Assembly: GCA_937125225.1 (NCBI GenBank)
Contig: CAKZLE010000020.1
Span: 186,001 to 250,000, forward strand
Direction of reading: 5' to 3'
Length of the DNA stretch: 64,000 bases
Source of the DNA: an uncultured Spirochaetia bacterium
GTDB taxonomy: Bacteria; Spirochaetota; Spirochaetia; CAKZLE01
Shown: in pieces, positions 2,877-64,000 of the stretch
How the letters are laid out: each line of letters opens with the position of its first letter
Position numbering within the stretch: the first letter of the stretch is position 1
Program-made: the position numbers and the translations under genes
The notes under the pieces: model-generated
The model's database searches: none
What the model was told of the DNA's origin: nothing
The model's input: only the letters and a program-made list of their open reading frames with translations

Positions 2877-4298
2877 ATGAAACAGCATTCGAATCGTTTG
2901 GTAGCAGGTATCTCTATACTGCTTTTGAGTATTACATTATTCACCGGTTGTTCTACCCTGCGGGCCTGGGTTCAAGATGTCCCTGTCTGGGTCATAGAGA
3001 AACCGGCAAATACACTGACTAAGGTCTTCTTCGTCTCAGAGGGTATAGACCCTGATGGGTTCGAAATGACCGCTAGGCAGTTTGCCTATGAGGGGTTGCT
3101 CACCGAGGTCTCTGAATTTCTTGGATATAGTACAGATGAGACCTACAGTAGAGAGTTGCTTCAGACGGGTGCCATCACCGATTTGGAATTGATCATCACT
3201 GAGGAATTCATCAGAGAGAGTGAAGAGGGTCTCCAAGTCTATATCATAGCAGAATCGAATAGAAAGACTATCAGTAAGCTCGTTCGAGACAACCTTGATA
3301 CGATCAAAGCTGATGAGGAACGTATCGATGCTCCAGAGGCCGAGGCTAAGGATGCCTATAAGAGACAAGAAGACTATCAGGCTTTTCTGAGTTATATCGA
3401 AGCTGCACAGATTGCCTATACATCTCCACTAGCGGAATCACAAGCCCGATACGATGGACTGATGAGGAATGCAATCTCAGTCCTTGAAGGCTTGAATATC
3501 GCGAGTGAGGCATCTGACCCTGATCAGGGAGTATTCACGGTGAAGGTGACGAGAGGGACCGGGATCTTTGCACCGAAGATCGAGGGACTCCCGCTTGCTG
3601 CGAGCTTCCCGATCAAGAATGCTGCAGGTAAAGTCAGACAACAGGAACTTCAGGACACCACCGATTCCAAAGGACTTCTCACGATTGCCCCTACCCATAC
3701 GAATTTCAGAGGATCCGGAGTTGTCAGGGTATACCTAGACCTTGAGGAGGTCCTTACCTCCTTAAGCGAATCTATCGGTGCTGATGATCCGTATGTCATA
3801 GAGTTGCGTTCACTCATCGTGAAGAAGAGTATTGAGTTCGAATTCTCTATATCTTCAGATATCGCAGGGTCGGTGATCGTAGTGGCTTTTCTAGATTATA
3901 AGAAGAACGGGTCCTTGACTTCAGATACGGTGACCCTTGATTCTCTGATCAGCTCGTTGAAAGCAGATGGGATCTTTGTAAACAGGATAGATCCCAATGG
4001 TGAGCTCTCAGATGAGGATGCGATGCTGAACTATGCGACTGAGACCTATGGGGACTCTCGTTCTATCGTAGTGATCGGTAGTGCCGGGGTGACCTCTATC
4101 ATTGAATCCAGTGGTTCTCATGTCGCATCGGTAAAAGGAGATGCGAGGATCTATGCCTTAGAGGATGGTTCCCTATTTGCCGAGAGCGGCACCTTTGCCG
4201 CTAATGCAGTAGGCGCAACCCCTCTTGCAGCTCAGGAGGCAGCTTTTCAGCGCTTTGGCCAAATAGCTGCTTCTCTGATCATCAGTAAACTCCTATAG
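2877..4298 (+). CDS. LPP20-like lipoprotein
   Basis: 473 residues. The signal peptide ends in FTGC (lipobox Cys about 25). Residues about 36-160 (VPVWVIEKP then an Ala/Glu-rich helix-strand stretch) look like the LPP20 fold, in which a conserved PxW precedes helices. The C-terminal half includes a beta-rich segment and ends with AAQEAAFQRFGQIAASLII. The ribosome site CTGGAGG is 9 nt upstream. It is probably in an operon with the preceding lipoprotein; the pair may be partners or paralogues. The last 6 nt overlap the convergent gdpD gene. No function is assigned. Confidence 0.6.
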   Translation: MKQHSNRLVAGISILLLSITLFTGCSTLRAWVQDVPVWVIEKPANTLTKVFFVSEGIDPDGFEMTARQFAYEGLLTEVSEFLGYSTDETYSRELLQTGAITDLELIITEEFIRESEEGLQVYIIAESNRKTISKLVRDNLDTIKADEERIDAPEAEAKDAYKRQEDYQAFLSYIEAAQIAYTSPLAESQARYDGLMRNAISVLEGLNIASEASDPDQGVFTVKVTRGTGIFAPKIEGLPLAASFPIKNAAGKVRQQELQDTTDSKGLLTIAPTHTNFRGSGVVRVYLDLEEVLTSLSESIGADDPYVIELRSLIVKKSIEFEFSISSDIAGSVIVVAFLDYKKNGSLTSDTVTLDSLISSLKADGIFVNRIDPNGELSDEDAMLNYATETYGDSRSIVVIGSAGVTSIIESSGSHVASVKGDARIYALEDGSLFAESGTFAANAVGATPLAAQEAAFQRFGQIAASLIISKLL

Positions 4299-5060
4299 GA
4301 GAGCTTTCAACATTCCTGGATCATTACCGATCATTCCATCAACACCCAGATCTATAAGGCGGTTTGCCTCTACTTCTGAGTTCACCGTCCAGGCGAACAT
4401 CGGATACCCTCTGCGTTCATGATCGATAGAGAACGTCCTCTCCTTGATAAGAGAGTAGTGGGGTTTCAAGAAACCACAACCGGCAATATACCGTCCCTTC
4501 CCATGCTGGAGAAGCTTTGGAACTTGATCATCGATACAATAGATGACTGCCGTAGGGATACGGTTTCCCGATACCCTTCTGAAACTTCTCACTGCAAAGG
4601 GATTGAAAGAAGAGACTACACAATGGTCTTCCATCGCATAACTCCTAATCAGGTCGAATAGCGAGGAGGCTAGGCCTAGGTCTTTAAAACCAGACTGTTT
4701 CAACTCGATATCATAGTAGAGAGAGTCTCCGAAGGTGTCGAAGAGTTCCTCCATCAGCGGGATATAGGCCTCCTTGAAAGTTGGAGCTTTGAAGGAGCCT
4801 GCATCAAGAGCCCTCAGTTGTTCGTAGTTCATCTGTTCAACGATCCCGTCAAATCCTGTTACCCGTTTCACTGAGAAATCATGGGTTATCACGAGTTCCC
4901 CTGATGCACAGATATGTACATCAAGTTCGACTCCTGGAACACCTCTCTCTACACAAAGGGAGAAGGCTTCCATCGTATTCTCGGGGGCTTCTTCTGAGAA
5001 TCCTCTGTGTCCGAAGATCAGAGGACGTGCTCTTCCTGGGAGAATGTCTCGGTTTTTCAT
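4293..5060 (-). CDS. Glycerophosphodiester phosphodiesterase
   Basis: 255 residues, the size of a stand-alone GDPD domain. FGHRGFSEEAPENTMEAF holds the first catalytic His and the Glu-Asn metal site, VELDVHICASGELVITHD holds the E-x-D metal ligands and the second catalytic His, and YYDIELK completes the barrel. It hydrolyses glycerophosphodiesters to glycerol 3-phosphate and an alcohol. No signal peptide, so it is probably cytosolic. It is last in a minus-strand operon with nfo and the IMPase gene; its ATG directly follows the nfo stop codon. GlpK, encoded far away at 49437, could feed the same glycerol-3-phosphate pool. Confidence 0.88.
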   Translation of the reverse strand: MKNRDILPGRARPLIFGHRGFSEEAPENTMEAFSLCVERGVPGVELDVHICASGELVITHDFSVKRVTGFDGIVEQMNYEQLRALDAGSFKAPTFKEAYIPLMEELFDTFGDSLYYDIELKQSGFKDLGLASSLFDLIRSYAMEDHCVVSSFNPFAVRSFRRVSGNRIPTAVIYCIDDQVPKLLQHGKGRYIAGCGFLKPHYSLIKERTFSIDHERRGYPMFAWTVNSEVEANRLIDLGVDGMIGNDPGMLKALL

Positions 5061-5906
5061 CTATTTATTCTCTAACTCATAGAGTAGTTTGATCTCTTCA
5101 TCCCATATCTCTGCATCGATCGTCTCAAGGACGATAGGCATATTATCAAAGCGATCGTCCTTCATGATAAAGGAGAAAGTATCGATCCCGATATTTCCCT
5201 TCCCGATACTATGATGTCTATCGACATGGCTATTGAAGGTACTCTTTGCATCGTTGAGGTGGACACCCATCAGCTTATCGAACCCGATGGTCGACTCAAA
5301 ATCGGCCATAGTCCTGTCATAACTCTCTCGGGTCCTTATATCATATCCTGCGGCAAAGATATGGCAGGTGTCTATGCAGACTCCGACTCGATCCTTCTTT
5401 TCGACCTGATCGATGATCGATGCGATCTCCTCGAAACTCCTTCCGAGTGCTGATCCCTGACCGGCAGTCGTCTCAATGACCAGTTTGATATCAGGTACTC
5501 TTTGAATCGCCTCGTTCAGGCTCTCTGCGATGAGCGTGATACATTCAGCAGGCTCGATCACCTTGAGATGTGCTCCCGGGTGAAAGTTCAGTCTATCGAG
5601 TCCGAGCATGGACACGCGTTCGAGTTCATGGATGAACGAATCAAGACTCTTCTGTCGCTTCTCAGGATCGGCATTACCTAGATTGATGAGGTAACTGTCA
5701 TGAGGTAGCACCTGATGAGGTTCATACCCATAGGTGGTCATAGCCTCTTTGAATCGCAGGATGTCATCTTCAGTGAGAGGCTTTGCCTTCCACTGTCGCT
5801 GACTCTTGGTAAAGAGAGCAAATGCTTTTGCCCCTATATTATGTGCGTTCTCAGGCGCATGATATAAGCCGCCAGCTGCGCTGACATGAGCTCCAATATA
5901 TTTCAT
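5061..5906 (-). CDS. nfo: Endonuclease IV (AP endonuclease)
   Basis: 281 residues, full length for Nfo. The family's N-terminus ([14 protein letters not shown]) is present, with zinc-ligand motifs [16 protein letters not shown] (Glu), [19 protein letters not shown] and [12 protein letters not shown]. It cuts 5' to abasic sites in base-excision repair; a family-4 uracil glycosylase that could supply abasic sites is encoded at 54818. The start codon overlaps the upstream stop as ATGA, indicating translational coupling, and a GGAGAG site lies about 6 nt before it. Confidence 0.95.
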
Positions 5907-6751
5907 TGATTCTCTCCTATTTGGTCGAGTCCTCTTTGCAGGATCTCTTTATGTTGTTCATAATGCTTGCTCACCAATTCAGTGAGATCACCTAGGATCT
6001 CTTCTCGAGCCACGATCAGTGATCTACCTGTGAGAGGATCATAGGGTTCTCCAAAGAAATTCTGATAGGGGATACCAGCCTCCTGCAGCAGTACAAGGGC
6101 TGCGCAGATATCATAGATACGGAGATCTGTCTCCCAGTATCCATGGAAGAATCCTGCTGCACAGTAGGCTAGGTCCAATGCCGCTGAGCCCATTCTCCTA
6201 ATCTCCTGACATCGGGTCAGAAGGTCTTTGGCAGAGTCGAAATAACCATCTGCTACATCCGGCGATCTGAAGGGCATACCGGTTGCTATAAAGGAGTCTT
6301 CAAGTCTTCCGTTAAAATCATAGAGAGGTAATCTCCTATCATCAAGCCATGCTCCATGACCTTTTGCTGCAGAGAAGAACTCTTGTGAGACTGGTCGATA
6401 TATGATACCGAGTACCGGTTCGCCTCTATACAGAAGTCCTATCGATATACACCATTCAGCTATCCCATGGAGGAAGTTCAATGTCCCATCTATAGGATCG
6501 ACCACCCAGGTATACTCTTCTCCGATGGTCTTGTCAGTCTCCTCACCGTAAAAGGCTGCCTCAGGGAGGACCTTCCCCAGCATCTCATGGATCATCTTCT
6601 CACTCTCGATATCGATTACCGATACCACCTCTCGTGGACGTTTCTGATACCCGTGAACAGACTCGGGTTTTCGATAAAAAGATAGTTGGTATTCACCGAT
6701 ACGAGGAAGCTCTAGCTTCACCTCTTTAAGGATCTCTGTAAGTTCGACCAT
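5903..6751 (-). CDS. Inositol monophosphatase family protein
   Basis: 282 residues from the ATG at 6751. This start is preferred because GGGAG lies 8 nt upstream; a GTG at 6760 is an alternative. Metal-binding motifs are visible: GEETDK (Glu), [15 protein letters not shown] (DPxDGT) and WETDLRIYD near the C-terminus. The family includes SuhB, CysQ-like 3'-phosphoadenosine phosphatases and archaeal-type fructose bisphosphatases; the sequence alone does not settle the substrate. First gene of the minus-strand IMPase-nfo-gdpD operon, transcribed from a good promoter at 6772-6801 that diverges from mnmE. Confidence 0.88.
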
Positions 6752-6771
6752 TGTTGTCACTCCCTATCTCT

Positions 6772-6801
6772 ATGATACTAAAGTATCTTATGATCAGTCA
6801 A
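6772..6801 (-). promoter_or_regulatory. Sigma70-like promoter of the IMPase-nfo-gdpD operon
   Basis: Read on the minus strand: TTGACT (6801-6796), 18 nt spacer, TATCAT (6777-6772). The predicted transcript would have a leader of roughly 15 nt with a GGGAG site, unlike the leaderless arrangement of the diverging mnmE promoter. Confidence 0.6.
6774..6787. promoter_or_regulatory. Short palindrome GATACTAAAGTATC over the -10 box
   Basis: A perfect 6-bp inverted repeat with a 2-nt centre that covers most of the -10 element of the minus-strand promoter. Its placement would suit a repressor operator; no regulator is known for it. Confidence 0.3.
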
Positions 6802-6861
6802 TCAAGAGTGTATTGAGTACTCAGGTTCTTCAGGTATGTGGAGAGAAGCATCTATTTACTA

Positions 6862-6890
6862 TTGAAGGAATAGTTCATGTGAATTATAAT
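6862..6890 (+). promoter_or_regulatory. mnmE promoter, leaderless arrangement
   Basis: TTGAAG (6862-6867), 17 nt spacer, perfect TATAAT (6885-6890). The ATGs at 6895 and 6898 lie 4 and 7 nt beyond the -10 box, so transcription should begin at or in the start codon. No Shine-Dalgarno sequence is possible. Confidence 0.65.
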
Positions 6891-6897
6891 CGCCATG

Positions 6898-8247
6898 ATG
6901 AAATATGCATATTACGATACAGATGACCCTATTGTCGCCTTAGCTACCCCTTGGGGGGAGAGCGCACTAGCTGTGATCAGAGTCTCAGGAACAGCTTCGG
7001 TCGATATGGCAGCTCCCTGTTTCTCGAGACCTGATAGGCTACTTAAGGGAGACTCTCATACTATACACTATATGAACTTCATCGATCCAGCAGATAATAT
7101 GCCGATCGACGAAGTAACCGTTGCCATCTACAGAGCTCCCCATGGGTTCACGGGACAGGACTCTTTGGAGATCTTCTGTCATGGTTCTCTGGTGAGTATC
7201 AAGAAGATACTTGAGACCCTAAAGTCGGTCGGTTTCAGAGACGCAAGACCGGGTGAGTTCACGTTGCGTGCCTTTACCCAGGGGAAACTCGATCTCACTC
7301 AGGCTGAAGCCGTTCAGGAGATCGTCTCTGCGAAATCAAGGCAGGCACATTCTCTGGCTCTTCATCGACTTTCTGGTGGACTCTTCTCCCATATAGATAT
7401 GATCAAGCGAGATCTACTTCTCATATTGAGCCGTATAGAACTTCAACTCGATTATGCTGAGGATGAGGTAGTGCTCGATGAGGAGATCGATGAGATCTCA
7501 CTGCATAAGGCTATCCGGGCTCTAGGCGAGCTTGCTGCGACCTATAGGACCGGTAAGATATTCTCACAGGGAGTCAAGATAGCTCTTGCAGGGCCGACGA
7601 ATGCCGGAAAATCTTCTCTGTTCAATCTGTTTCTCAAAGAGGACCGTTCGATAGTATCAGATATTCATGGTACGACTAGAGACTATATAGAGTCATGGAT
7701 CTCTATAAAGGGTATCCCTGTTCGACTCTATGACACTGCTGGCTTTAGAGCTTCTGTCGATGTGATTGAGGAAGAGGGGATCAGAAGGAGTATTCAACTT
7801 CTTGAAGATTCGGATCTTGTCATCTATATGATCGGAACAGAGGATATCTCTTCACTCATGGAAGAACATCCTGAATATATCTATATCTGGAATAAATCAG
7901 ATATCAGAGAGGGAAACGCCCCAGAAGGGTCGCTACCCCTATGTTCGCTGACTGGGGAGGGATTCTCTGACATCGAGAAGGAGATCATCTCTCGATTGGA
8001 GATCACGAATATCGACAACTCTGGGGAGCATGAGATCATGATTGATTCACTGCGACAGAAGGAACTTTTAGATAGAGGTGTCATTTCTCTTGATAGTGCA
8101 GTGGAGGCCATCGAATCAGGCATGCCTCTTGATGTGGTCGCTCCAGATATTCAAGACTGTATCGATGCTCTTGGAGAGATCACCGGAGAGATCACCTCAG
8201 CAGATATCCTCGACACGATCTTCTCAGGATTCTGTGTAGGGAAATAA
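6898..8247 (+). CDS. mnmE: tRNA modification GTPase MnmE (TrmE)
   Basis: 449 residues from the second of two adjacent ATGs (the alternative is 6895). The N-terminal formyl-THF-binding dimerisation domain begins IVALATPWGESALAVIRVSG. The helical domain carries an inserted G domain: G1 GPTNAGKSSLFN (about residue 230), G2/G3 GTTRDY and DTAG, G4 NKSD. The C-terminus FCVGK is the family's catalytic Cys motif. With MnmG it makes the cmnm5 modification at wobble U34 of tRNAs. mnmG follows after 14 nt, so they form an operon. The promoter position predicts a leaderless mRNA. Confidence 0.96.
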   Translation: MKYAYYDTDDPIVALATPWGESALAVIRVSGTASVDMAAPCFSRPDRLLKGDSHTIHYMNFIDPADNMPIDEVTVAIYRAPHGFTGQDSLEIFCHGSLVSIKKILETLKSVGFRDARPGEFTLRAFTQGKLDLTQAEAVQEIVSAKSRQAHSLALHRLSGGLFSHIDMIKRDLLLILSRIELQLDYAEDEVVLDEEIDEISLHKAIRALGELAATYRTGKIFSQGVKIALAGPTNAGKSSLFNLFLKEDRSIVSDIHGTTRDYIESWISIKGIPVRLYDTAGFRASVDVIEEEGIRRSIQLLEDSDLVIYMIGTEDISSLMEEHPEYIYIWNKSDIREGNAPEGSLPLCSLTGEGFSDIEKEIISRLEITNIDNSGEHEIMIDSLRQKELLDRGVISLDSAVEAIESGMPLDVVAPDIQDCIDALGEITGEITSADILDTIFSGFCVGK

Positions 8248-8261
8248 TAAGGAAGAATTCA

Positions 8262-10070
8262 ATGGATGTAGATGCAATCGTCATCGGGGGCGGACATGCA
8301 GGAATCGAGGCAGCTTTAGCACTCTCTCGATTACAGTTTTCCACACTGATGATAACCCAGAGTCTCGATGCGATAGGGCGACTATCCTGTAATCCAGCAA
8401 TCGGTGGACTCTCTAAGGGGAATATGGTTCGTGAGATCGACGCTCTTGGTGGTGAGATGGGAAATCTCATCGATGAGACGATGATCCAATTCAGAATACT
8501 CAATCGAAGAAGAGGACCAGCAGTCCAGGCCCCTCGGGCTCAGGCTGACAAGTTCAGTTATAATAGATTGGCTAAAGAGACTTTGGAACACCAGAAAGGA
8601 CTCTCTCTCTTTCAAGATACAGTGGTGGACCTCATCCTCGATTCAAGTGGTACCCGTGTGATCGGTGTTGTCACCGAAAGGGGAAGACGCTTCCATGCAA
8701 AGGTCGTAGTCCTCACTACGGGAACCTTTATGGATGGGAAGATATTCATTGGTGAGTATGTTGCCTCGTCAGGAAGACTTGGCGAACCTGCTGCTCTGGG
8801 ATTGGGGACCGCCCTTCGAAGGATGGGCCTGACCCTCGGTCGAATGAAGACAGGGACTCCTGCCCGAGTGAAACGGTCATCTCTTGATTTCGATAAGATG
8901 GAGATCCAGCCGGGAGACTCCCTTATGCAACCTTTCTCCTTCTCCAGAGAGAAGATAGAGAGACCCTCTCTATCCTGCTGGATAACCTTCACTAATGAGA
9001 AGACTCACCAGATCATTCAGGATAATATTCATCGTTCCCCCCTGTATGGTGGGCAGATCGTAGGTCTCGGACCTCGTTATTGTCCATCCCTAGAGGACAA
9101 GGTGGTCAGGTTCCCTGATAGAGACAGACATCAGATCTTCGTCGAACCTGAAGGTATCGGTACAGAGGAGATGTATCTTAACGGGATATCCTCCTCCCTT
9201 CCAGAGGATGTACAGGAAGATTTTATCCACTCTATAGAGGGCCTCGAGGAGGCCGAGATCATGAGAACCGGTTATGCCGTTGAATATGATTATATCGATC
9301 CCACTCAGCTCTATCCTACCTTGGAGTGTAAACAGTTCAAAGGACTCTATGTCGCCGGACAGACCAATGGGACGAGTGGCTATGAGGAGGCTGCAGGACA
9401 GGGGCTCATCGCTGCGATAAATGCAGGCCAATCCCTGCTCGGTAAGGCCCCATTGATCCTCTCGAGGTCTGAAGCCTATATCGGGGTACTCATCGATGAT
9501 CTAGTCACGAAGGGGACCAACGAACCCTACAGGATGTTCACCTCACGTGCTGAATACCGCTTGAACCTCAGACATGATTCTGCAGATCAACGATTGACGA
9601 GGAAGTCCTATGAAATCGGGTTACAGAGCAGTGAGGCCTTAGAACGTCTTGAATATAAACTCAAAGGGATAGAAGAGATAAAAGAGCTTCTCAGGGTGAA
9701 GAAGCATGAGGGGAAGAGCTGGATACAGCACCTCAAACGACCAGAGATGACGATCGATCAGATTGTAGACTCAGTCCCTGAACTGAACTCCTTTGATCCG
9801 GTATATGTGAACCAGGTAGAACTCGATATAAAATATGAGGGTTATATAAAGCGACAAGAACAGCAGGTCAAACGATTCGAACGGATGGAATTCATGAAGA
9901 TTCCCCTTGATTTTGATTATGATGAGATCGAAGGTCTCTCTAATGAATCCAAGGAGAAGTTCAAGAGTGTGCGACCGATGTCTGTAGGACAGGCTTCGAG
10001 GATCTCGGGTGTCAGAAACTCTGATATAGCAGTCTTGATGGTCATATTGGGGAGAAAGAAACGTGGATAA
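8262..10070 (+). CDS. mnmG: tRNA uridine 5-carboxymethylaminomethyl modification enzyme MnmG (GidA)
   Basis: 602 residues, slightly shorter than the usual 620-650. The FAD Rossmann motif VIGGGHAGIEAALAL is at the N-terminus, then the family motif LSCNPAIGGLSKG and, mid-protein, GQTNGTSGYEEAAGQGLIAA. The C-terminal MnmE-binding helical region ends VGQASRISGVRNSDIAVLMV. It is the FAD/NADH partner of MnmE in cmnm5U34 formation. AAGGAAG precedes the ATG. It overlaps rsmG by 8 nt, the common mnmE-mnmG-rsmG arrangement. Confidence 0.97.
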   Translation: MDVDAIVIGGGHAGIEAALALSRLQFSTLMITQSLDAIGRLSCNPAIGGLSKGNMVREIDALGGEMGNLIDETMIQFRILNRRRGPAVQAPRAQADKFSYNRLAKETLEHQKGLSLFQDTVVDLILDSSGTRVIGVVTERGRRFHAKVVVLTTGTFMDGKIFIGEYVASSGRLGEPAALGLGTALRRMGLTLGRMKTGTPARVKRSSLDFDKMEIQPGDSLMQPFSFSREKIERPSLSCWITFTNEKTHQIIQDNIHRSPLYGGQIVGLGPRYCPSLEDKVVRFPDRDRHQIFVEPEGIGTEEMYLNGISSSLPEDVQEDFIHSIEGLEEAEIMRTGYAVEYDYIDPTQLYPTLECKQFKGLYVAGQTNGTSGYEEAAGQGLIAAINAGQSLLGKAPLILSRSEAYIGVLIDDLVTKGTNEPYRMFTSRAEYRLNLRHDSADQRLTRKSYEIGLQSSEALERLEYKLKGIEEIKELLRVKKHEGKSWIQHLKRPEMTIDQIVDSVPELNSFDPVYVNQVELDIKYEGYIKRQEQQVKRFERMEFMKIPLDFDYDEIEGLSNESKEKFKSVRPMSVGQASRISGVRNSDIAVLMVILGRKKRG

Positions 10071-10713
10071 GAGATTAGTAGAGGCTCTTAAGAGCTTAGA
10101 ACTCACCTATGATGAGACTCAGTTGAATGCCCTTGGTCTCTATCTTTCAGAGATCGAGTTCTGGAATCCGACCTATAAACTCATCGCTGCAGATCATGAA
10201 GGGATCATCTATCGCCATATCCTAGACTCCCTTGCACCGCTCTCAATTCTTGAAGAGTCGATAAAGACCCTAACTGGCAATTCTCTCGCAGATCTTGGTT
10301 CGGGTAACGGTATGCCTGGGATACCTCTTTCGATCATGCTCCCTGACTCCCATATGACGCTCATCGAGAGATCAGGAAGGAGAGTAGGATTCTTGAGGAA
10401 TGCCTTGGCTGCTACCTCCCTCTCCGGAAGAGTCTCCATCATCGAAGAGGATATCACTTCAGTACGACAGCAGTTCGATATGCTCCTGTTTCGAGCATTT
10501 CGACCATTGAAGGAGATCTTCGGGTTGCTCGATTCATTATTATTGCCAGGTGGAGTCATGTTCGCCTATAAGGGGCAGTTGAAACAGGTAGAAGAGGAGA
10601 TCGAAGGGATCAGCGCTCTTCTTGAAGGCCGATTCACTGTAGAGAACAGACCCTATGAGATTCCAGGTCTAGAGGCTGAGCGGACGATCTGCCTGATAAC
10701 CAAGTTGAAATAA
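10063..10713 (+). CDS. rsmG: 16S rRNA (guanine527-N7)-methyltransferase RsmG (GidB)
   Basis: 216 residues starting at a GTG inside the end of mnmG (8-nt overlap). ILDSLAPL precedes the SAM-binding motif LADLGSGNGMPGIPLSI (about residues 73-90), followed by LIERSGRRVGFL and FRAFRPLKEI, all typical of RsmG. It methylates N7 of G527 in the 530 loop of 16S rRNA using SAM. Translation is probably coupled to mnmG. Loss of this enzyme gives low-level streptomycin resistance in other bacteria (family knowledge). Confidence 0.95.
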   Translation: MDKRLVEALKSLELTYDETQLNALGLYLSEIEFWNPTYKLIAADHEGIIYRHILDSLAPLSILEESIKTLTGNSLADLGSGNGMPGIPLSIMLPDSHMTLIERSGRRVGFLRNALAATSLSGRVSIIEEDITSVRQQFDMLLFRAFRPLKEIFGLLDSLLLPGGVMFAYKGQLKQVEEEIEGISALLEGRFTVENRPYEIPGLEAERTICLITKLK

Positions 10714-10723
10714 TCGAATTCAC

Positions 10724-10752
10724 TTGAATGAGATATTTTTTCCTTGTATGCT
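10724..10752 (+). promoter_or_regulatory. uppP promoter, leaderless arrangement
   Basis: TTGAAT (10724-10729), 17 nt spacer with a T-run, TATGCT (10747-10752), then 6 nt to the ATG at 10759. The predicted transcription start coincides with the start codon. Confidence 0.5.
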
Positions 10753-10758
10753 AGTGAG

Positions 10759-11550
10759 ATGGAAATATTCAATGCAATCCTCTTAGGAGCAATACAGGGT
10801 GTGACAGAGTTCCTTCCTGTTTCAAGCTCCGGACATCTGCTGCTCATGAAACACTTCTTGGATATGGGAGAAGTACCGATCCTGTTTGATGTACTCCTTC
10901 ATATCGCGACCTTGCTTGTAGTCTTGGGCTTTTTCAGACGACAGATCTTTTCTATCCTGAGAGCCCTCTGGCATTGGGTGCAGAAATCAATCGATACTGA
11001 GGATGCCTACTACCTCAGACTCACAGTGGTGATCATCATCGCGACAGTCTTTACCGTATTGCTTGGCTTTATTCTCAATACCGTTGATTCCCTTCATACC
11101 ACCTCCTCCGTATCAGTGATGTTCATCTTGACGGGCCTTCTGCTGATCTCCACAAAGTTCGTGAAGAGTAGAGAGGATCAAACCCCGAAGAAGAGAAATG
11201 GGATCCTTGTAGGTATTGCACAGGGACTTGGTACTCTTCCAGGGATATCTCGATCCGGAATAACGATTACTGCTGCTCTTTGGGGAGGGATAGATAGAGA
11301 AAAGGCCGGAGAACTTTCCTTCCTTCTTTCGATTCCTGCAATCCTCGGTGCCTTTATACTGGAGATCGGTGAGAGTGGAACTCTTACCTCCCAGATGCAC
11401 ATAAGTGCTATTCTTATAGGCTGCCTTTCAGCGATCATCTCCGGTATACTGAGTCTGAAACTGTTACTTTGGCTGATCAGATCTGGAAAACTCTATTTCT
11501 TCAGTATCTATCTGATTCCACTTGGTATCATCGGCCTTATATGGCTATAA
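10759..11550 (+). CDS. uppP: Undecaprenyl-diphosphate phosphatase UppP (BacA)
   Basis: 263 residues from the ATG at 10759, where MEIFNAILLGAIQGVTEFLP begins exactly like the family; a TTG at 10744 lies inside the promoter. Catalytic motifs are VTEFLPVSSSGHL near the N-terminus and ISRSGITITAALWGG (PGxSRSG-like) at about 157-175. There are about eight hydrophobic membrane segments. It dephosphorylates undecaprenyl-PP to recycle the lipid carrier for peptidoglycan and polysaccharide, a carrier the manC/Wzz locus at 17754 would also need. Confidence 0.95.
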   Translation: MEIFNAILLGAIQGVTEFLPVSSSGHLLLMKHFLDMGEVPILFDVLLHIATLLVVLGFFRRQIFSILRALWHWVQKSIDTEDAYYLRLTVVIIIATVFTVLLGFILNTVDSLHTTSSVSVMFILTGLLLISTKFVKSREDQTPKKRNGILVGIAQGLGTLPGISRSGITITAALWGGIDREKAGELSFLLSIPAILGAFILEIGESGTLTSQMHISAILIGCLSAIISGILSLKLLLWLIRSGKLYFFSIYLIPLGIIGLIWL

Positions 11551-11551
11551 T
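11522..11551 (+). promoter_or_regulatory. Candidate ftsK promoter inside the end of uppP
   Basis: TTGGTA (11522-11527), 18 nt spacer, TATAAT (11546-11551), the last base lying just past the uppP stop codon. It would give ftsK a leader of about 35 nt containing its GGGGGGAG site. Confidence 0.45.
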
Positions 11552-11591
11552 ACGAGAAAAGAGATAAAATCTTATTGAGAAGGGGGGAGAT

Positions 11592-14048
11592 GTGAATAAA
11601 CGTGGATCACGAATAGTCTATGCGACTCTGTTTTTTCTGCTGGCAACAGTGATTCTGCTTGTACTCATACTTACTACTCAATCTGTTGCGATGAAACTTC
11701 CAAGTATCATCGGTTGGGTTGATTCCCTCCTGAGGACCCTTTTTCTTCAGGCCGTATGGGCTGTCCCTGCATATCTTTTCTATTGTGGGTTTCTCGCACT
11801 CTATATCGATGAGAATCATCAGTATCAGGCCCTATATCCCTTTACCGCTATACCTTTTCTCACGATCATAGGTCTCCTTCACTTACAATCTGGATCAAGC
11901 GATTCAGTGTCTTATCGATGGATTGCAGAGAATCTCGGGATCCAATCAGCATCGATGATCCTACTAGTTGTATTCATCCTTGAGGTGATCCTCTTTTTCA
12001 TCTGGGCCCTGAACTGGTTTGGTAGGGGAAATTCCAATCATAGTGCTAATTATGTGCTCCAGGAACAACCACCGGTAGCAAAGAGTCTCGGTAGTCAGAA
12101 GGACAGCCTCACTGCGGCGATCGCTCAAGAGAAGAGGACTCAGAAAGAGGCAAAACAACAAGATAGGGTTGAGCTTGGATCTGATGATGACCATCAACCG
12201 TTAGAGTTGACTCTATCCTTTCCCGATCTCCCTGATCTCCCTGTATTGAATACCGTACCATCCTCGATCTATGTGGAAGAACCTAGAGAAGAGGTGATTG
12301 AAGAGTCGGTGCAGACACTCGATGATATCGACCTTACCGACGAACTTCCTGAAGTGCTAGCGGTACCGGATGAACAGCATCCCGTGGTTGAGAATCTAGA
12401 ACCTCCCGTGCAGATTCATGGGAAACTTCATGAGATAAAGCTCGAGGCTCCTGAACCTGAGATCATAAGGATCGGAAGACATGAGATCCCCAAGATTCCT
12501 GAAGAGAATCCCCATTTCGAAAATAGCAAACGACCGGATATTGCCGGGCGTCTTACGAAGATCCATACCTCCATTGATGAAGATGCTAACTTACCGAGAG
12601 AAGAACTCCTCTCAACGGGAATCGCGACTCTTGGTTATATCTATCCACCTGAAGCTGTTCTTGATACCTATCCGGATGTTTCTGTCGATATTGATGAGGT
12701 CACCAAGATCTCGGGAGATGTCCTGATGAAGACTCTCCGGGAGTTCAAGATAGAGGCAGAGCTCACTGGGATACAGAAAGGTCCTGTGGTAACGATGTAT
12801 GAGGTACTCCCAGCGCCAGGTATACGAGTACAGGCGATCACCAACCTCGCAGATAATATCGCTCTTCAACTTGCGGCCTCACGTGTTCGTATCGTAGCAC
12901 CAATTCCAGGGAAACAGGCTGTAGGGATCGAGGTCCCAAATAAGAATAGATCGATCGTCTCCTTCAGGGAGATGCTCGCAGAGATAGATAACAGATCCAA
13001 TTACGAGATTCCTATTGTCCTTGGAAAGGATATAACCGGAGAGTCCCAGGTCATTGACCTCGCGAAGACTCCACACCTTCTGATAGCAGGAGCAACCGGT
13101 TCTGGTAAATCAGTCTGTGTGAACTCACTGATCTGTTCCATCCTCTTCCGTCAATCCCCAAAGGATATAAGATTGATGATGGTTGACCCGAAGATCGTAG
13201 AGTTGAAACTCTATAATGATATTCCTCATCTCCTCACACCAGTCATAACCGATTCAAAGAAGGCCATCAAAGCATTACAATACTGTATCTATGAGATGGA
13301 ACGAAGATATGAACTGCTCGATCATCTGAATGTGAGAGATATCAAGACCTATAACAAGCGAATAATTGAAAAGGAATATGCCCGGGAGAAGCTTCCCTAT
13401 ATCGTCCTGATCATAGATGAGTTCGCAGATCTGATGACCACTGCAGGAAAGGAGATAGAGGCATATCTCGCACGACTTGCCGCAATGGCCCGTGCTGTTG
13501 GGATCCATCTTGTTCTGGCAACCCAACGACCCTCAACGAATGTCATCACAGGTATCATCAAGGCTAATATTCCCTCAAGGATCGCCTTCATGGTAACAAG
13601 TAATATGGACTCTCGAATAATCCTCGACCAGCCTGGAGCTGAGAAGCTTCTCGGTAGAGGTGATATGCTTTTCTCCTCCTCTTGGGATCCAAGTCTTGCA
13701 CGAATCCAGGGGGCTTTCCTCTCTGAAGAAGAGGTCGAAAGGATCGTAGAAGAGGTCAAACATAATGGGGAACCTGACTACCTAGATGAGGAGCTCTTTT
13801 GGGATGATGAGGATGTGGAAGAGGATGGTGTCGCACTTGAATCGACAGGTGATCCTCTCATGGATGAGGCTCTTAAGATCGTCTACAGTCGGAATAGTGC
13901 ATCAGCCTCCTATCTTCAGAGACGCTTGAAGATAGGCTACAATCGTGCAGCAAGATTGATCGAAGAGATGGAAGACCGAGGTATCGTTGGACCTGCTAGA
14001 GGTAGTCAACCAAGAGAGATCCTCAGGATGACAGATATCGATCGTTAG
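11592..14048 (+). CDS. ftsK: DNA translocase FtsK/SpoIIIE
   Basis: 818 residues from a GTG preceded by a strong GGGGGGAG site. Four hydrophobic segments in residues 1-150 form the membrane domain, followed by an acidic, Pro/Glu-rich linker (about 160-330). The motor contains Walker A GATGSGKSVCVN (about 501), Walker B-type IVLIIDEFADLM and the ATQRPSTNVITG motif. The C-terminal winged-helix gamma domain (about 745-818) normally reads KOPS-like DNA sequences. It pumps chromosomal DNA through the septum for dif resolution. It follows uppP by 41 nt. Confidence 0.95.
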   Translation: MNKRGSRIVYATLFFLLATVILLVLILTTQSVAMKLPSIIGWVDSLLRTLFLQAVWAVPAYLFYCGFLALYIDENHQYQALYPFTAIPFLTIIGLLHLQSGSSDSVSYRWIAENLGIQSASMILLVVFILEVILFFIWALNWFGRGNSNHSANYVLQEQPPVAKSLGSQKDSLTAAIAQEKRTQKEAKQQDRVELGSDDDHQPLELTLSFPDLPDLPVLNTVPSSIYVEEPREEVIEESVQTLDDIDLTDELPEVLAVPDEQHPVVENLEPPVQIHGKLHEIKLEAPEPEIIRIGRHEIPKIPEENPHFENSKRPDIAGRLTKIHTSIDEDANLPREELLSTGIATLGYIYPPEAVLDTYPDVSVDIDEVTKISGDVLMKTLREFKIEAELTGIQKGPVVTMYEVLPAPGIRVQAITNLADNIALQLAASRVRIVAPIPGKQAVGIEVPNKNRSIVSFREMLAEIDNRSNYEIPIVLGKDITGESQVIDLAKTPHLLIAGATGSGKSVCVNSLICSILFRQSPKDIRLMMVDPKIVELKLYNDIPHLLTPVITDSKKAIKALQYCIYEMERRYELLDHLNVRDIKTYNKRIIEKEYAREKLPYIVLIIDEFADLMTTAGKEIEAYLARLAAMARAVGIHLVLATQRPSTNVITGIIKANIPSRIAFMVTSNMDSRIILDQPGAEKLLGRGDMLFSSSWDPSLARIQGAFLSEEEVERIVEEVKHNGEPDYLDEELFWDDEDVEEDGVALESTGDPLMDEALKIVYSRNSASASYLQRRLKIGYNRAARLIEEMEDRGIVGPARGSQPREILRMTDIDR

Positions 14049-14058
14049 GAAGTTATTC

Positions 14059-14913
14059 ATGAACAGCATTGATTCAAACATACCCAAACACGCTCTAAAC
14101 GGTTATACGCTCATTCCTGAGACTGAGGCAGTGTTACCTTTGAGGATCAGAGAGGTCTTTTTCAATTTCAGTGTCTATGAATCAATCAAGATCATTGAGA
14201 GTATCCCCCTTTTTCTGCAGGATCATATAGATAGACTCTTCACTTCCGCCCAGGAATTGAGTATGAGTCATGAATTCTCAAGTATTCCTCTCACTGCTGC
14301 GATCCATTCACTGATCGATGAGGACTCACTAAAGGATGCTACTCTTCGAATCCAGTTAGTCGGTGGTGATCACCCGTACCTGTTCGTCTTCTCTCAGGAC
14401 CTTCCCGAATATAAGGATAGCCTGTATGAGAAGGGCGTCTCTGTGATCTCCTATGAGGGTGAGAGAATAGAACCAGAAGTAAAATCGAACTGTCTGTTAC
14501 TCAACTATCTTGCCCTGCGTGAAGCACGAGAGAAAGGCGCCTTCGAGGCTATTCTTGTCGATAGATATGGGATGGCAATAGAGGGGACGCGAAGTAATGT
14601 CTTCGGGATTCAAGGGAATACCCTCTATACACCGGGCTCTGGTGTCCTTGCTGGTGTGACAAGGAAACATATACTCGAGGCTGCAGAGAGTATCGGCATG
14701 GAGATTGCCTTCACAGATACCTCTTACTTTGAACTGAGATCTGGGTTCTTCGATGAATTTTTCATCTCATCGACGAGCATGGGGGCCATGCCGGTGTCAA
14801 TGATCGATGATGTGATGATCGGGAAGACCTTTCCTAAGACCCATAAGCTTCATGAGGAGTTCTCTCAGATTGAGCAGAGCTATATTGCTGATCGACGTCT
14901 ACGTAAAGCATAG
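14059..14913 (+). CDS. Class IV PLP-dependent aminotransferase (IlvE/Dat/PabC fold)
   Basis: 284 residues. VFFNFSVYESIKI near the N-terminus and DHIDRLFTSA fit the fold-type IV family. The Lys of EVKSNCLLLNYLALREA fits the PLP Schiff-base site, AIEGTRSNVFGIQGNTLYTP the E...S-N-V/I-F phosphate-binding loop, and EFFISSTSMGAMPV the C-terminal T-S-T loop. The family includes branched-chain aminotransferase, D-alanine aminotransferase and aminodeoxychorismate lyase; the sequence does not decide among them. It follows ftsK by 10 nt with AGGAAG, so it is probably co-transcribed. Its end overlaps the convergent gene by 34 nt. Confidence 0.8.
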   Translation: MNSIDSNIPKHALNGYTLIPETEAVLPLRIREVFFNFSVYESIKIIESIPLFLQDHIDRLFTSAQELSMSHEFSSIPLTAAIHSLIDEDSLKDATLRIQLVGGDHPYLFVFSQDLPEYKDSLYEKGVSVISYEGERIEPEVKSNCLLLNYLALREAREKGAFEAILVDRYGMAIEGTRSNVFGIQGNTLYTPGSGVLAGVTRKHILEAAESIGMEIAFTDTSYFELRSGFFDEFFISSTSMGAMPVSMIDDVMIGKTFPKTHKLHEEFSQIEQSYIADRRLRKA

Positions 14914-61301: not shown

Positions 61302-63131
61302 ATGTCATTGAAAAAAGAGGTTCGATTTGGTGGGGTGTTTTCTTTAGCGACCGGAGCTATGATCAGCTCAGGTATCTTCATCCTCCCGAGTCTGGCCTTC
61401 TCCAAGACTGGCCCAGCAGTAGCAGTCTCCTATTTTCTTGCCGGTATATTGGCTCTCATCGGTGTGTTGAGTATCATTGAGCTTGCGACTGCGATGCCGA
61501 AGGCTGGTGGTGACTATTTCTTTATCAACAGATCTCTTGGTCCCCTTGTGGGGACCTTGTCAGGTTTTCTTGGTTGGTTCGCACTCTCTCTCAAGAGTGC
61601 TTTTGCCATCTTCGGGATCTCGGAGATCGTATTGACGCTGATTGGGATATCCCCCCTGATCACGGCTGCTATTCTGACGCTTCTGTTCGTAATTCTCAAT
61701 ATCGTAGGAGTCAAAGAGGCAGCTGCATTTCAGGTACTTCTAGTAGTCGGTCTCCTCGTGATCATGGTGATCTATGTTATCGTAGGTATGCCAAGACTCC
61801 AACCGGATCATTTCAGCCCATTCATGCCGAATGGGGTGAACAGTATTCTGATCACTACGGGTTTCATCTTCGTCTCCTTCGGGGGATTACTCAAAGTCGC
61901 TAATATCGCTGAAGAGGTTCAGAATCCTAAACGGAATATCCCATTAGGGATGATCTCATCGATCATTGTCGTGACTATTCTCTATACATTGACTGTCATC
62001 GTCACTACGAGTGTCCTAGATAGTGAGAGTTTTATAAACTCCTATACCCCGATAGCAGATGCTGCTAGGATCCTTTTGGGAAGGGGCGGTTATATCATCA
62101 TCACCATCGCATCGATCCTAGCCTTCTTCACTACTGCCAATGCCGGGATCATGGCGGCTTCACGGTATCCATTAGCTTTGAGTAGAGATTCCCTCATTCC
62201 AGAAGGGATCAGCAGAATGCATCCAAGGCTACAGACACCTATCGTTTCTATAGTCATCACAGGGGTCCTTATCTACTGTTCTCTTCTTCTGCCTTTGGAG
62301 ATGCTGGTAAAATCAGCTTCTACTGTTATTCTCACATCCTATGTACTCACCAATGTATCTGTCATCATTCTTCGAGAGAGTAGGTTATCAAATTATCGAC
62401 CAAGTTTTTCAACACCCCTCTATCCCTTCATACAACTGTTCAGTATCGCGATATTCTCCTATTTCATCATAGATCTTGGGAAGGAGTCGATAGAGATCAG
62501 TCTCGCATTCGTTTTTCTCTGTTTCTGTTTCTATCTTCTCTATGGAAGAAGACGGAGTACTGGAGAGTATGCTCTTCTTCATGTTCTCAAGAGGATAACT
62601 GATAAGAGATTGACAGATGATCTCCTCGAACAGGAGCTCAGAGAGATCATCATCCATCGAGATGAGATCGAACAGGATGATTTTGATGAGTTGGTAAAGC
62701 ATGCACTTGTTCTTGATGTCGAAGAGAAAATCTCATTTGAGAGACTCTTGGATCAGCTTGAGGAGAGACTATCAGAAATAACAGGGCTGAGAGGAGAAGA
62801 GGTCAAAAAACGGTTTATCGAGCGCCAGAATGAATCTAATACGGCTATTACACAATTCCTTGCAGTCCCTCATATCATCCTTGATGATGGAGAGATGGTA
62901 TTGATCCTAGTAAGAGCAAAAAAAGGTATTCACTTCACTGATGATCAGGACTCGGTAAGATCTGTCTTCCTGTTTGGTGGACCGATTGAACAGAGAGGTC
63001 TTCATTTGAAGGTGCTATCCTCCATTGCATTGACAGCAGGACAGGCGGGGTTTGAAGAGATGTGGTTGAATGCCTCAGGTGCAGAGGACCTGAAGAACAT
63101 CTTCATACTCAGTTCCAGGATGAGATCCTGA
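61302..63131 (+). CDS. APC-family amino-acid permease fused to a PTS EIIA-type domain
   Basis: 609 residues. Residues 1-410 are an APC permease of about twelve helices (GGVFSLATGAMISSGIFILP, the family's TM1 G-rich loop; AEEVQNPKRNIPLG). After a charged linker, residues about 430-609 match a PTS EIIA type-2 (mannitol/fructose/nitrogen-PTS) domain: QFLAVPHIILDDGEMVLILV with the phosphorylatable His at 524 (AVPH), then IHFTDDQDSVRSVFLFGG. This suggests that amino-acid uptake is set by the phosphotransferase state. GGGGAGG precedes the ATG. Confidence 0.87.
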   Translation: MSLKKEVRFGGVFSLATGAMISSGIFILPSLAFSKTGPAVAVSYFLAGILALIGVLSIIELATAMPKAGGDYFFINRSLGPLVGTLSGFLGWFALSLKSAFAIFGISEIVLTLIGISPLITAAILTLLFVILNIVGVKEAAAFQVLLVVGLLVIMVIYVIVGMPRLQPDHFSPFMPNGVNSILITTGFIFVSFGGLLKVANIAEEVQNPKRNIPLGMISSIIVVTILYTLTVIVTTSVLDSESFINSYTPIADAARILLGRGGYIIITIASILAFFTTANAGIMAASRYPLALSRDSLIPEGISRMHPRLQTPIVSIVITGVLIYCSLLLPLEMLVKSASTVILTSYVLTNVSVIILRESRLSNYRPSFSTPLYPFIQLFSIAIFSYFIIDLGKESIEISLAFVFLCFCFYLLYGRRRSTGEYALLHVLKRITDKRLTDDLLEQELREIIIHRDEIEQDDFDELVKHALVLDVEEKISFERLLDQLEERLSEITGLRGEEVKKRFIERQNESNTAITQFLAVPHIILDDGEMVLILVRAKKGIHFTDDQDSVRSVFLFGGPIEQRGLHLKVLSSIALTAGQAGFEEMWLNASGAEDLKNIFILSSRMRS

Positions 63132-63197: not shown

Positions 63198-63268
63198 GCG
63201 CCCATGGTATAGTGGTATTACGACAGCTTCCCAAGCTGTAAAGGCGAGTCCGATTCTCGTTGGGCGCT
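63198..63268 (+). tRNA. tRNA-Gly (anticodon CCC)
   Basis: 71 nt. Acceptor GCGCCCA pairs perfectly with TGGGCGC (63261-63267), followed by discriminator T. Anticodon stem ACAGC/GCTGT flanks loop TTCCCAA, anticodon CCC reading GGG. The T arm is GCGAG-TCCGATT-CTCGT. The D arm is short (GTA/TAC). CCA is not encoded. A cas3 gene starts 159 nt downstream. Confidence 0.93.
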
Positions 63269-63353
63269 GATATCTTCTATGAGTAAATGATGTTTCGTTT
63301 AACACTTTGATGTAGTTTTTTGGGTAAAAGCTTAATTCTGCAACTGTAACAAC

Positions 63354-63412
63354 CTCTTTATTATTAATAGGTTCTGATATTCAGATATCTATTAACAATA
63401 GTATTTAAAGAG
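63354..63412. repeat. Imperfect inverted repeat between the tRNA and cas3
   Basis: CTCTTTA (63354-63360) is complementary to TAAAGAG (63406-63412), and TTAATAG (63364-63370) to CTATTAA (63389-63395), with GATATTC..GATATC-like symmetry in the loop. It lies in an AT-rich stretch just before cas3; it could be a terminator, promoter-region operator or structural relic. Confidence 0.4.
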
Positions 63413-63427
63413 TTGTGAAGGTTGTAC

Positions 63428-64000
63428 ATGTATCAGAGATTTTATAACTATTGGGCTAAAGCGAAAGATTCTCATTCTTATCATCTTTTGATATATCATT
63501 GTCTTGACGTTTCAGCTGTCGGTAATGTATATCTAGAGAAACATCCCGCATTATTACAGCGAATTTGTTCAAATATTGATTGTACTAAACAACAATTCAT
63601 AGCTTGGTATTGTTATGCTTTGGCAATTCACGATATTGGTAAATATGCTGCTTCCTTTCAAAATATCATTCCAGACCTTAGAACTTCACTCATAGGTGAA
63701 TCGCGTAAAACATATAATATCCGACATGACGTTCTAGGCTGGTGGTTGTGGAATACTAAATTCAAACCAATATTGATGGATACGATAGGTGATAAGACAA
63801 CGAACCATCGGAATCTTTTGGTATTTATTAAACCTTTTATGCAAATAGCGATGGGGCATCATGGAAGACCTGTAGATAAAAAAGAAAAATGTGATTATGA
63901 GTTTTTACCTGTAGATATCGATGCTGCATTAACTTGGAACAATGAATGTCAGAAGTTCTTCTCAATTTATGATTATATTCCTATATCTCTTTATAACATG
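63428..64000 (+). CDS. cas3: CRISPR-associated helicase/nuclease Cas3, N-terminal HD domain (type I-E-like), partial
   Basis: The first 191 residues; the frame is open at the right edge. HD nuclease motifs: HLLIYHCLDVSAV (19-31; identical to E. coli Cas3 over HLLIYHCLDV), ALAIHDIGKYAASFQ (64-78, HD at 68-69), RHDVLG (99-104) and MGHHG (142-146). The YWAK start is also shared with E. coli. Cas3 degrades the R-loop target DNA after Cascade binding; its helicase part would lie beyond the window. AAGG lies 7 nt before the ATG. AT-rich codon use differs from the rest of the window, suggesting acquisition by transfer. Confidence 0.9.
   Translation, partial: MYQRFYNYWAKAKDSHSYHLLIYHCLDVSAVGNVYLEKHPALLQRICSNIDCTKQQFIAWYCYALAIHDIGKYAASFQNIIPDLRTSLIGESRKTYNIRHDVLGWWLWNTKFKPILMDTIGDKTTNHRNLLVFIKPFMQIAMGHHGRPVDKKEKCDYEFLPVDIDAALTWNNECQKFFSIYDYIPISLYNM

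What the first reader, a model, noticed from the sequence alone, without database searches (positions are those of the whole stretch)
63198..64000. Type I-E CRISPR-Cas locus starting beside tRNA-Gly at the window edge
The Cas3 HD domain begins 159 nt after a tRNA-Gly(CCC). The cas3 stretch and the spacer before it are clearly more AT-rich than the preceding 63 kb, and tRNA 3' ends are common integration sites. The remaining cas genes, array and possibly an island boundary should lie just to the right.
Basis: partly seen in the sequence, partly recalled or inferred. Interest (0 to 1): 0.6.

Follow-up and report, generated by a model that had tools for sequence, protein, structure and literature searches.

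The report
Complete type I-E CRISPR beside tRNA-Gly
The window ends inside the first gene of an ordinary, complete bacterial CRISPR immune system with 42 stored phage memories, at least four of which match a whole phage genome found in the same assembly; nothing supports the idea that the system jumped in at the neighbouring tRNA gene.

Summary
A tRNA-Gly(CCC) (63198-63268) is followed 159 nt later by the HD domain of an I-E Cas3, in AT-rich DNA. Reading past the window edge in the same contig shows a complete, single-strand locus, cas3-cse1-cse2-cas7-cas5-cas6e-cas1-cas2, and one array of 43 repeats (the last degenerate) and 42 spacers. The sdaA-alpha-galactosidase-topA genes follow at normal GC. 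"Type I-E" is confirmed.

The island part is half right. Cas genes have GC3 0.24-0.33 against about 0.48 in the flanks. The only same-family genome held keeps patatin-tRNA-Gly(CCC) and sdaA-topA but has no Cas1e, so a gain by this lineage is likely. But the tRNA 3' end is not repeated within about 57 kb to the right, and no integrase lies in the segment. tRNA-mediated integration is unsupported.

New here: six spacers match one circular 33.6-kb tailed-phage contig of the same assembly with 3-7 mismatches (best of 40 simulated nulls: 9). All six lie on one strand, and the four best all have an AAG PAM. This fits a standard I-E system with recurrent, perhaps primed, acquisition against one drifting phage lineage. 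Cas1 groups with spirochaetes and Cas7 with Fibrobacter (module exchange). Ordinary kind; modest interest.

The parts
61302..63131 (+). left flank: amino-acid permease with C-terminal PTS EIIA-like domain, the last host gene before the tRNA; not part of the CRISPR system
   Evidence: Pfam AA_permease_2 and PTS_EIIA_2; normal GC 0.450, GC3 0.479
63198..63268 (+). tRNA-Gly(CCC), the conserved chromosomal landmark bordering the cas locus; not shown to be an attachment site
   Evidence: ARAGORN; same tRNA directly downstream of the patatin gene in same-family genome G001, and on the same contig and strand in G040
63269..63427 (+). 159-nt AT-rich intergenic stretch between tRNA and cas3; presumably holds the cas promoter (inferred)
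   Evidence: sequence read directly
63428..64000 (+). cas3 (type I-E helicase-nuclease), first 191 codons, which is all that lies in the window; the gene runs on to L002:6157 (window numbering 66157, outside the window). The rest of the locus follows at L002:6160-14685 (window numbering 66160-74685): cse1, cse2, cas7, cas5, cas6e, cas1, cas2, 42-spacer array
   Evidence: Pfam Cas3_HD; whole protein PADLOC Cas3e 4.3e-186; downstream genes by NCBIfam models; array

Best explanation
This is the 5' end of a complete, probably functional type I-E CRISPR-Cas locus, most likely of a spirochaete. Inferred working, by family knowledge: Cas6e cuts the array transcript at the repeat hairpin; Cascade (Cse1, Cse2, Cas7, Cas5, Cas6e) carries the 61-nt crRNA to DNA next to an AAG PAM; Cas3 is recruited and degrades the target; Cas1-Cas2 adds new spacers at the AT-rich leader between cas2 and the first repeat. 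Shown: all eight genes intact with key catalytic residues in those checked (Cas1, Cas3, Cas6e), one array of 42 spacers, and four protospacers with AAG PAMs (plus two weaker ones) on a co-assembled phage genome. The locus was probably gained by this lineage between an old patatin-tRNA-Gly neighbourhood and the sdaA-topA neighbourhood. The route is unknown, and tRNA-directed integration is not supported.
For: Eight genes in the canonical I-E order on one strand. I-E NCBIfam models above cut-off for cse1 to cas2; cas3 passes the cas3_core and cas3_HD domain models, with the PRK09694 Cas3 equivalog at 500 of 569 bits; PADLOC I-E models agree for all eight. Cas1 aligns nearly end to end with E. 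coli Cas1 (3nkd), keeping E141, H208, D218 and D221. Cas3 keeps HD, Walker A and DEVH motifs, and Cas6e keeps the histidine of HQ-LW. The 29-nt repeat folds into a 7-bp hairpin. Array: 43 repeats, 42 spacers of 32-33 nt, degenerate last repeat at the far end, so the leader end is next to cas2. It is the only array with this repeat in the genome. Six spacers match contig C1 with 3, 3, 4, 6, 7 and 7 mismatches, against a best of 9 in 40 Markov nulls. The four best are each preceded by AAG, the consensus E. coli I-E PAM (PMC6282206). Cas genes GC3 0.24-0.33 against 0.475-0.485 in flanking genes. Flanks syntenic without cas in G001; no Cas1e in G001.
Against: Expression and activity are untested. 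The C1 matches are all imperfect, so present immunity to C1 may be weak. The clean empty site was not seen, because the G001 contig ends 272 nt after the tRNA. Low GC of cas genes can also occur in long-resident loci (general knowledge).
Confidence: 0.9

Rival explanations
1. A genomic island: an integrase-bearing element inserted at the 3' end of tRNA-Gly and brought the cas locus with it, leaving the tRNA 3' end repeated at the far border.
For: Position right after a tRNA, a sharp GC drop, and absence of Cas1e from the same-family genome.
Against: No repeat of the tRNA 3' end in about 57 kb to the right; the single 12-nt match lies mostly 3' of the tRNA and is of chance length. No integrase or other mobile gene between tRNA and sdaA. 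The low-GC stretch ends with cas2, and the array and flank are normal.
Confidence: 0.07
2. Old vertical resident: the tRNA-cas order is ancestral to the family and was lost in relatives.
For: Cas1 falls in a well supported clade with three other spirochaete-associated Cas1 proteins (99/98).
Against: The order is seen in none of the sampled relatives; tRNA-Gly(CCC) of G040 is followed by other genes; only 5 of 41 genomes, this one included, hold a Cas1e above cut-off. Cas7 groups with Fibrobacter, not with G023 or Treponema UBA4873.
Confidence: 0.15
3. The matches to contig C1 are not a real host-phage link: C1 is a contaminant contig and the similarity is chance.
For: The assembly may be a metagenome bin (4.5% contamination); matches are imperfect.
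Against: 3-4 mismatches in 32 nt against a null best of 9, AAG PAM in 4 of 4 best, one strand, and conserved peptides at the sites. Whether or not C1 was binned rightly, the array holds sequence of its relatives.
Confidence: 0.03

Closest known systems
Type I-E CRISPR-Cas of Escherichia coli K-12 (Cascade/Cas3)
   Same: Gene set and order cas3-casA-casB-casC-casD-casE-cas1-cas2, overlapping cas1/cas2, 29-nt repeat ending CCG with hairpin, 32-33-nt spacers, AAG PAM, intact Cas1 catalytic residues (E. coli features from general knowledge and PMC6282206)
   Different: Effector proteins are distant (Cse1 matches E. coli CasA at only 6.3e-10 by phmmer); the host is another phylum (inferred); one array of 42 spacers
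Type I-E locus of Spirochaetia bacterium D159 (L095)
   Same: Cas1 68%, Cas2 67% and Cas7 53% identical; same gene order
   Different: Cas3 and Cse1 only 35% identical; the window's Cas7 is nearer to Fibrobacter L098
Type I-E loci of G023 (same class) and Treponema UBA4873 (L094)
   Same: Cas1 69-71% and Cas2 65-67% identical
   Different: The effector module is of a different I-E branch (Cas7 32-34%, Cse1 21% or not detected), so adaptation and effector modules have been exchanged

Membership tests
Type I-E CRISPR-Cas | signature gene cse1/cas8e | tested here: met
   TIGR02547 casA_cse1 279.5 bits, cut-off 70
Type I-E CRISPR-Cas | cse2, Cas7e, Cas5e, Cas6e effector subunits | tested here: met
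   TIGR02548, TIGR01869, TIGR01868, TIGR01907 all above cut-off
Type I-E CRISPR-Cas | fused HD-helicase Cas3 | tested here: met
   one 909-aa protein with cas3_HD and cas3_core above cut-off; PADLOC Cas3e 4.3e-186
Type I-E CRISPR-Cas | Cas1e and Cas2e adaptation pair | tested here: met
   TIGR03638 378 bits, TIGR01873 111 bits; Cas1 catalytic residues kept
Type I-E CRISPR-Cas | array of about 29-nt repeats and 32-33-nt spacers beside cas2 | tested here: met
   43 repeats at 61-bp period, 42 spacers
Type I-E CRISPR-Cas | AAG-type PAM upstream of protospacers | tested here: met
   AAG before the four best C1 protospacers; the two 7-mismatch sites have GGA and AAA
Type I-E CRISPR-Cas | crRNA-guided interference and acquisition in the cell | not testable with these tools
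   needs experiments
tRNA-integrated genomic island | direct repeat of the tRNA 3' end at the far border | tested here: not met
   no tRNA piece of 12 nt or more recurs in about 57 kb to the right
tRNA-integrated genomic island | integrase gene inside | tested here: not met
   only cas genes and the array between tRNA and sdaA among ORFs of 80 aa or more
tRNA-integrated genomic island | empty site in a close relative | tested here: inconclusive
   G001 keeps patatin-tRNA-Gly but its contig ends 272 nt later

The most novel reading that the evidence does not exclude
The array records a long association with one phage lineage that still coexists with the host. Six spacers, from old (34, 39, 40) to newer (6, 17, 20), all map to one strand of the co-assembled phage, as repeated primed acquisition against a drifting phage would produce, and the phage persists through protospacer changes that are mostly silent in its proteins.
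Probability: 0.45. Interest if true: 0.4.

Novelty: new member of a known kind. Interest (0 to 1): 0.27.

Why it matters
It settles a window-edge guess, adds a well delimited I-E locus with a mixed module history, and gives a host-phage pair with an inferred PAM, which is useful for assigning phages to uncultured relatives. It does not change the picture of type I-E systems.

Tried and rejected
Looked for a far-border copy of the tRNA 3' end at 12-16 nt in both orientations over the 56.7 kb of DNA right of the tRNA: nothing but one 12-mer lying mostly 3' of the tRNA. ARAGORN's second tRNA-Gly at L002:14261-14361 was rejected as an attachment-site copy: it spans CRISPR repeats and spacer 37, whose sequence is itself tRNA T-arm-like. 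Searched all spacers against 50,697 phage records: no match. Exact scan of viral contigs for the core of the tRNA-like spacer: none. Searched for relatives of phage C1: one viral contig at 49% for the head protein, one at 42% for the portal, and none in 296 other genomes of the class. A closed empty site could not be examined because the relative's contig ends there.

Full report
Observation. The window is bases 186001-250000 of contig C20 in a 3.43-Mb, 36-contig assembly. ARAGORN finds one tRNA in the window, tRNA-Gly(CCC) at 63198-63268. An open frame with ATG at 63428 runs to the edge, and its 191 codons match Pfam Cas3_HD (E 1.4e-27) and best PADLOC Cas3e. GC drops to 35.5% in the last kilobase.

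What lies to the right. L002 is C20:246001-266000, so L002 position = window position minus 60000. On the + strand it holds cas3 3428-6157, cse1 6160-7752, cse2 7756-8301, cas7 8318-9352, cas5 9360-10112, cas6e 10114-10815, cas1 10819-11730 and cas2 11711-11992 (the cas7 start at 8318 is my choice within a longer frame). Each of the seven genes after cas3 passes an I-E NCBIfam model. Cas3 passes the HD and helicase-core domain models and matches the Cas3 equivalog PRK09694 just below its cut-off (500 of 569 bits). PADLOC agrees for all eight. The array runs from 12094 to 14685: 43 repeats of ATATTCCCCACGGATGTGGGGATCAACCG at 61-bp spacing, 42 spacers, 41 of 32 nt and one of 33. The last repeat is degenerate, so the leader end faces cas2, after an AT-rich stretch. 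Three other repeats carry one base change. There is no second array of this repeat in the genome. The repeat RNA forms a 7-bp hairpin. Next come a short ORF (MLNQKIKQ...), sdaA 15070, an alpha-galactosidase-like gene 16260 and topA 18560 at about 44-52% GC (the last two names are my reading of the sequence).

Integrity of the machinery. Cas1 aligns over residues 6-302 with E. coli Cas1 and keeps E141, H208, D218 and D221 in E. coli numbering (residue roles from general knowledge). Cas3 keeps HD, Walker A (GSGKTEAA) and DEVHAYD. Cas6e keeps the histidine of HQ-LW. No frame is broken. Activity itself is inferred.

Island or not. Cas gene GC3 is 0.24-0.33, against 0.475-0.485 for permease, sdaA, aga and topA. 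In G001, the only same-family genome held, def-fmt-patatin-tRNA-Gly(CCC) is kept but the contig stops 272 nt beyond the tRNA. sdaA-aga-topA and further downstream genes are kept on another contig. G001 has no Cas1e. In G040 of another family, patatin and tRNA-Gly(CCC) lie in the same order about 4.4 kb apart, and no cas genes follow the tRNA. So the tRNA is an old landmark, the permease between patatin and tRNA is also absent there, and cas was seen here only in this lineage. Gain is the simplest reading. But no piece of 12 nt or more of the tRNA recurs in about 57 kb to the right, and there is no integrase between tRNA and sdaA. The tRNA-as-attachment-site part of the reading is not supported.

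Origin of the modules. Cas1 groups with G023 (same class), Treponema UBA4873 and Spirochaetia D159 (support 99/98), while Cas7 is sister to a Fibrobacter locus (99/97) and far from G023 and Treponema UBA4873 (identities). The adaptation and effector modules therefore have different histories among these loci, a known feature of CRISPR evolution (general knowledge; PMC8482600 reports sharing of adaptation machinery between systems).

Targets. The 42 spacers were compared with the host's own assembly. Beyond the array, the significant matches all fall on contig C1, 33,695 bp with a 77-bp terminal overlap, hence probably circular, about 33.6 kb. C1 encodes terminase, portal, head protein, tape measure, Erf-like annealing protein, YqaJ exonuclease, resolvase, replication initiator, DnaC-like loader and two DNA methyltransferases: a tailed phage. 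No integrase turned up among the proteins scanned. Spacers 34, 40, 6, 39, 17 and 20 match it with 3, 3, 4, 6, 7 and 7 mismatches. The best of 40 first-order Markov nulls was 9, and an equal length of host DNA gave 11. The four best are each preceded by AAG. All six lie on the same strand (two-sided chance 0.03). At the sites the encoded peptides are identical for spacers 34 and 40 and differ by one to three residues of ten for the others. Hence the spacers were taken from earlier or sister versions of this phage. In E. coli, primed acquisition takes almost only AAG-flanked pieces with strong strand bias (PMC6282206). The pattern here fits that, but six sites are few. In the literature I-E spacers on average prefer the template strand (PMC8482600), whereas five of the six here pair with the coding strand, which speaks for a history effect rather than a general rule. 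Spacers 34 and 40 have changes at positions 2 and 8 from the PAM, inside the seed (seed positions from general knowledge), while 6 and 39 keep the seed. C1 may thus be only partly resisted.

Verdict. The phage link is the most useful new fact.

Noticed in passing
G000 contig C1 (L092 + L093), 33.7 kb: A probably circular tailed-phage genome sits as its own contig in the host assembly, almost without relatives in the collections searched (best head-protein match 49%).
   Followed up: partly
L092:11420-12514: Phage C1 encodes a radical-SAM protein resembling the RNA methyltransferase RlmN, far below those family cut-offs but strong to PHROG 24834 of unknown function (4e-109). A phage-borne RlmN-like enzyme seems unusual.
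   Followed up: partly
L002:14320-14351 (spacer 37): This spacer reads as the T-arm of a tRNA (GAGGG TTCAATT CCCTC) and lies under a false tRNA-Gly call across the array. It has no match elsewhere in the host assembly and none in viral contigs exactly, so it probably comes from a mobile element's tRNA.
   Followed up: partly
L092:17182-17255: Phage C1 carries a tRNA-like sequence called tRNA-Leu(CAA) of only 74 nt, odd for a leucine tRNA.
   Followed up: no
window 61302-63131: Amino-acid permease fused to a PTS EIIA-like domain; at this place it is absent from the same-family genome, where patatin directly precedes the tRNA.
   Followed up: partly
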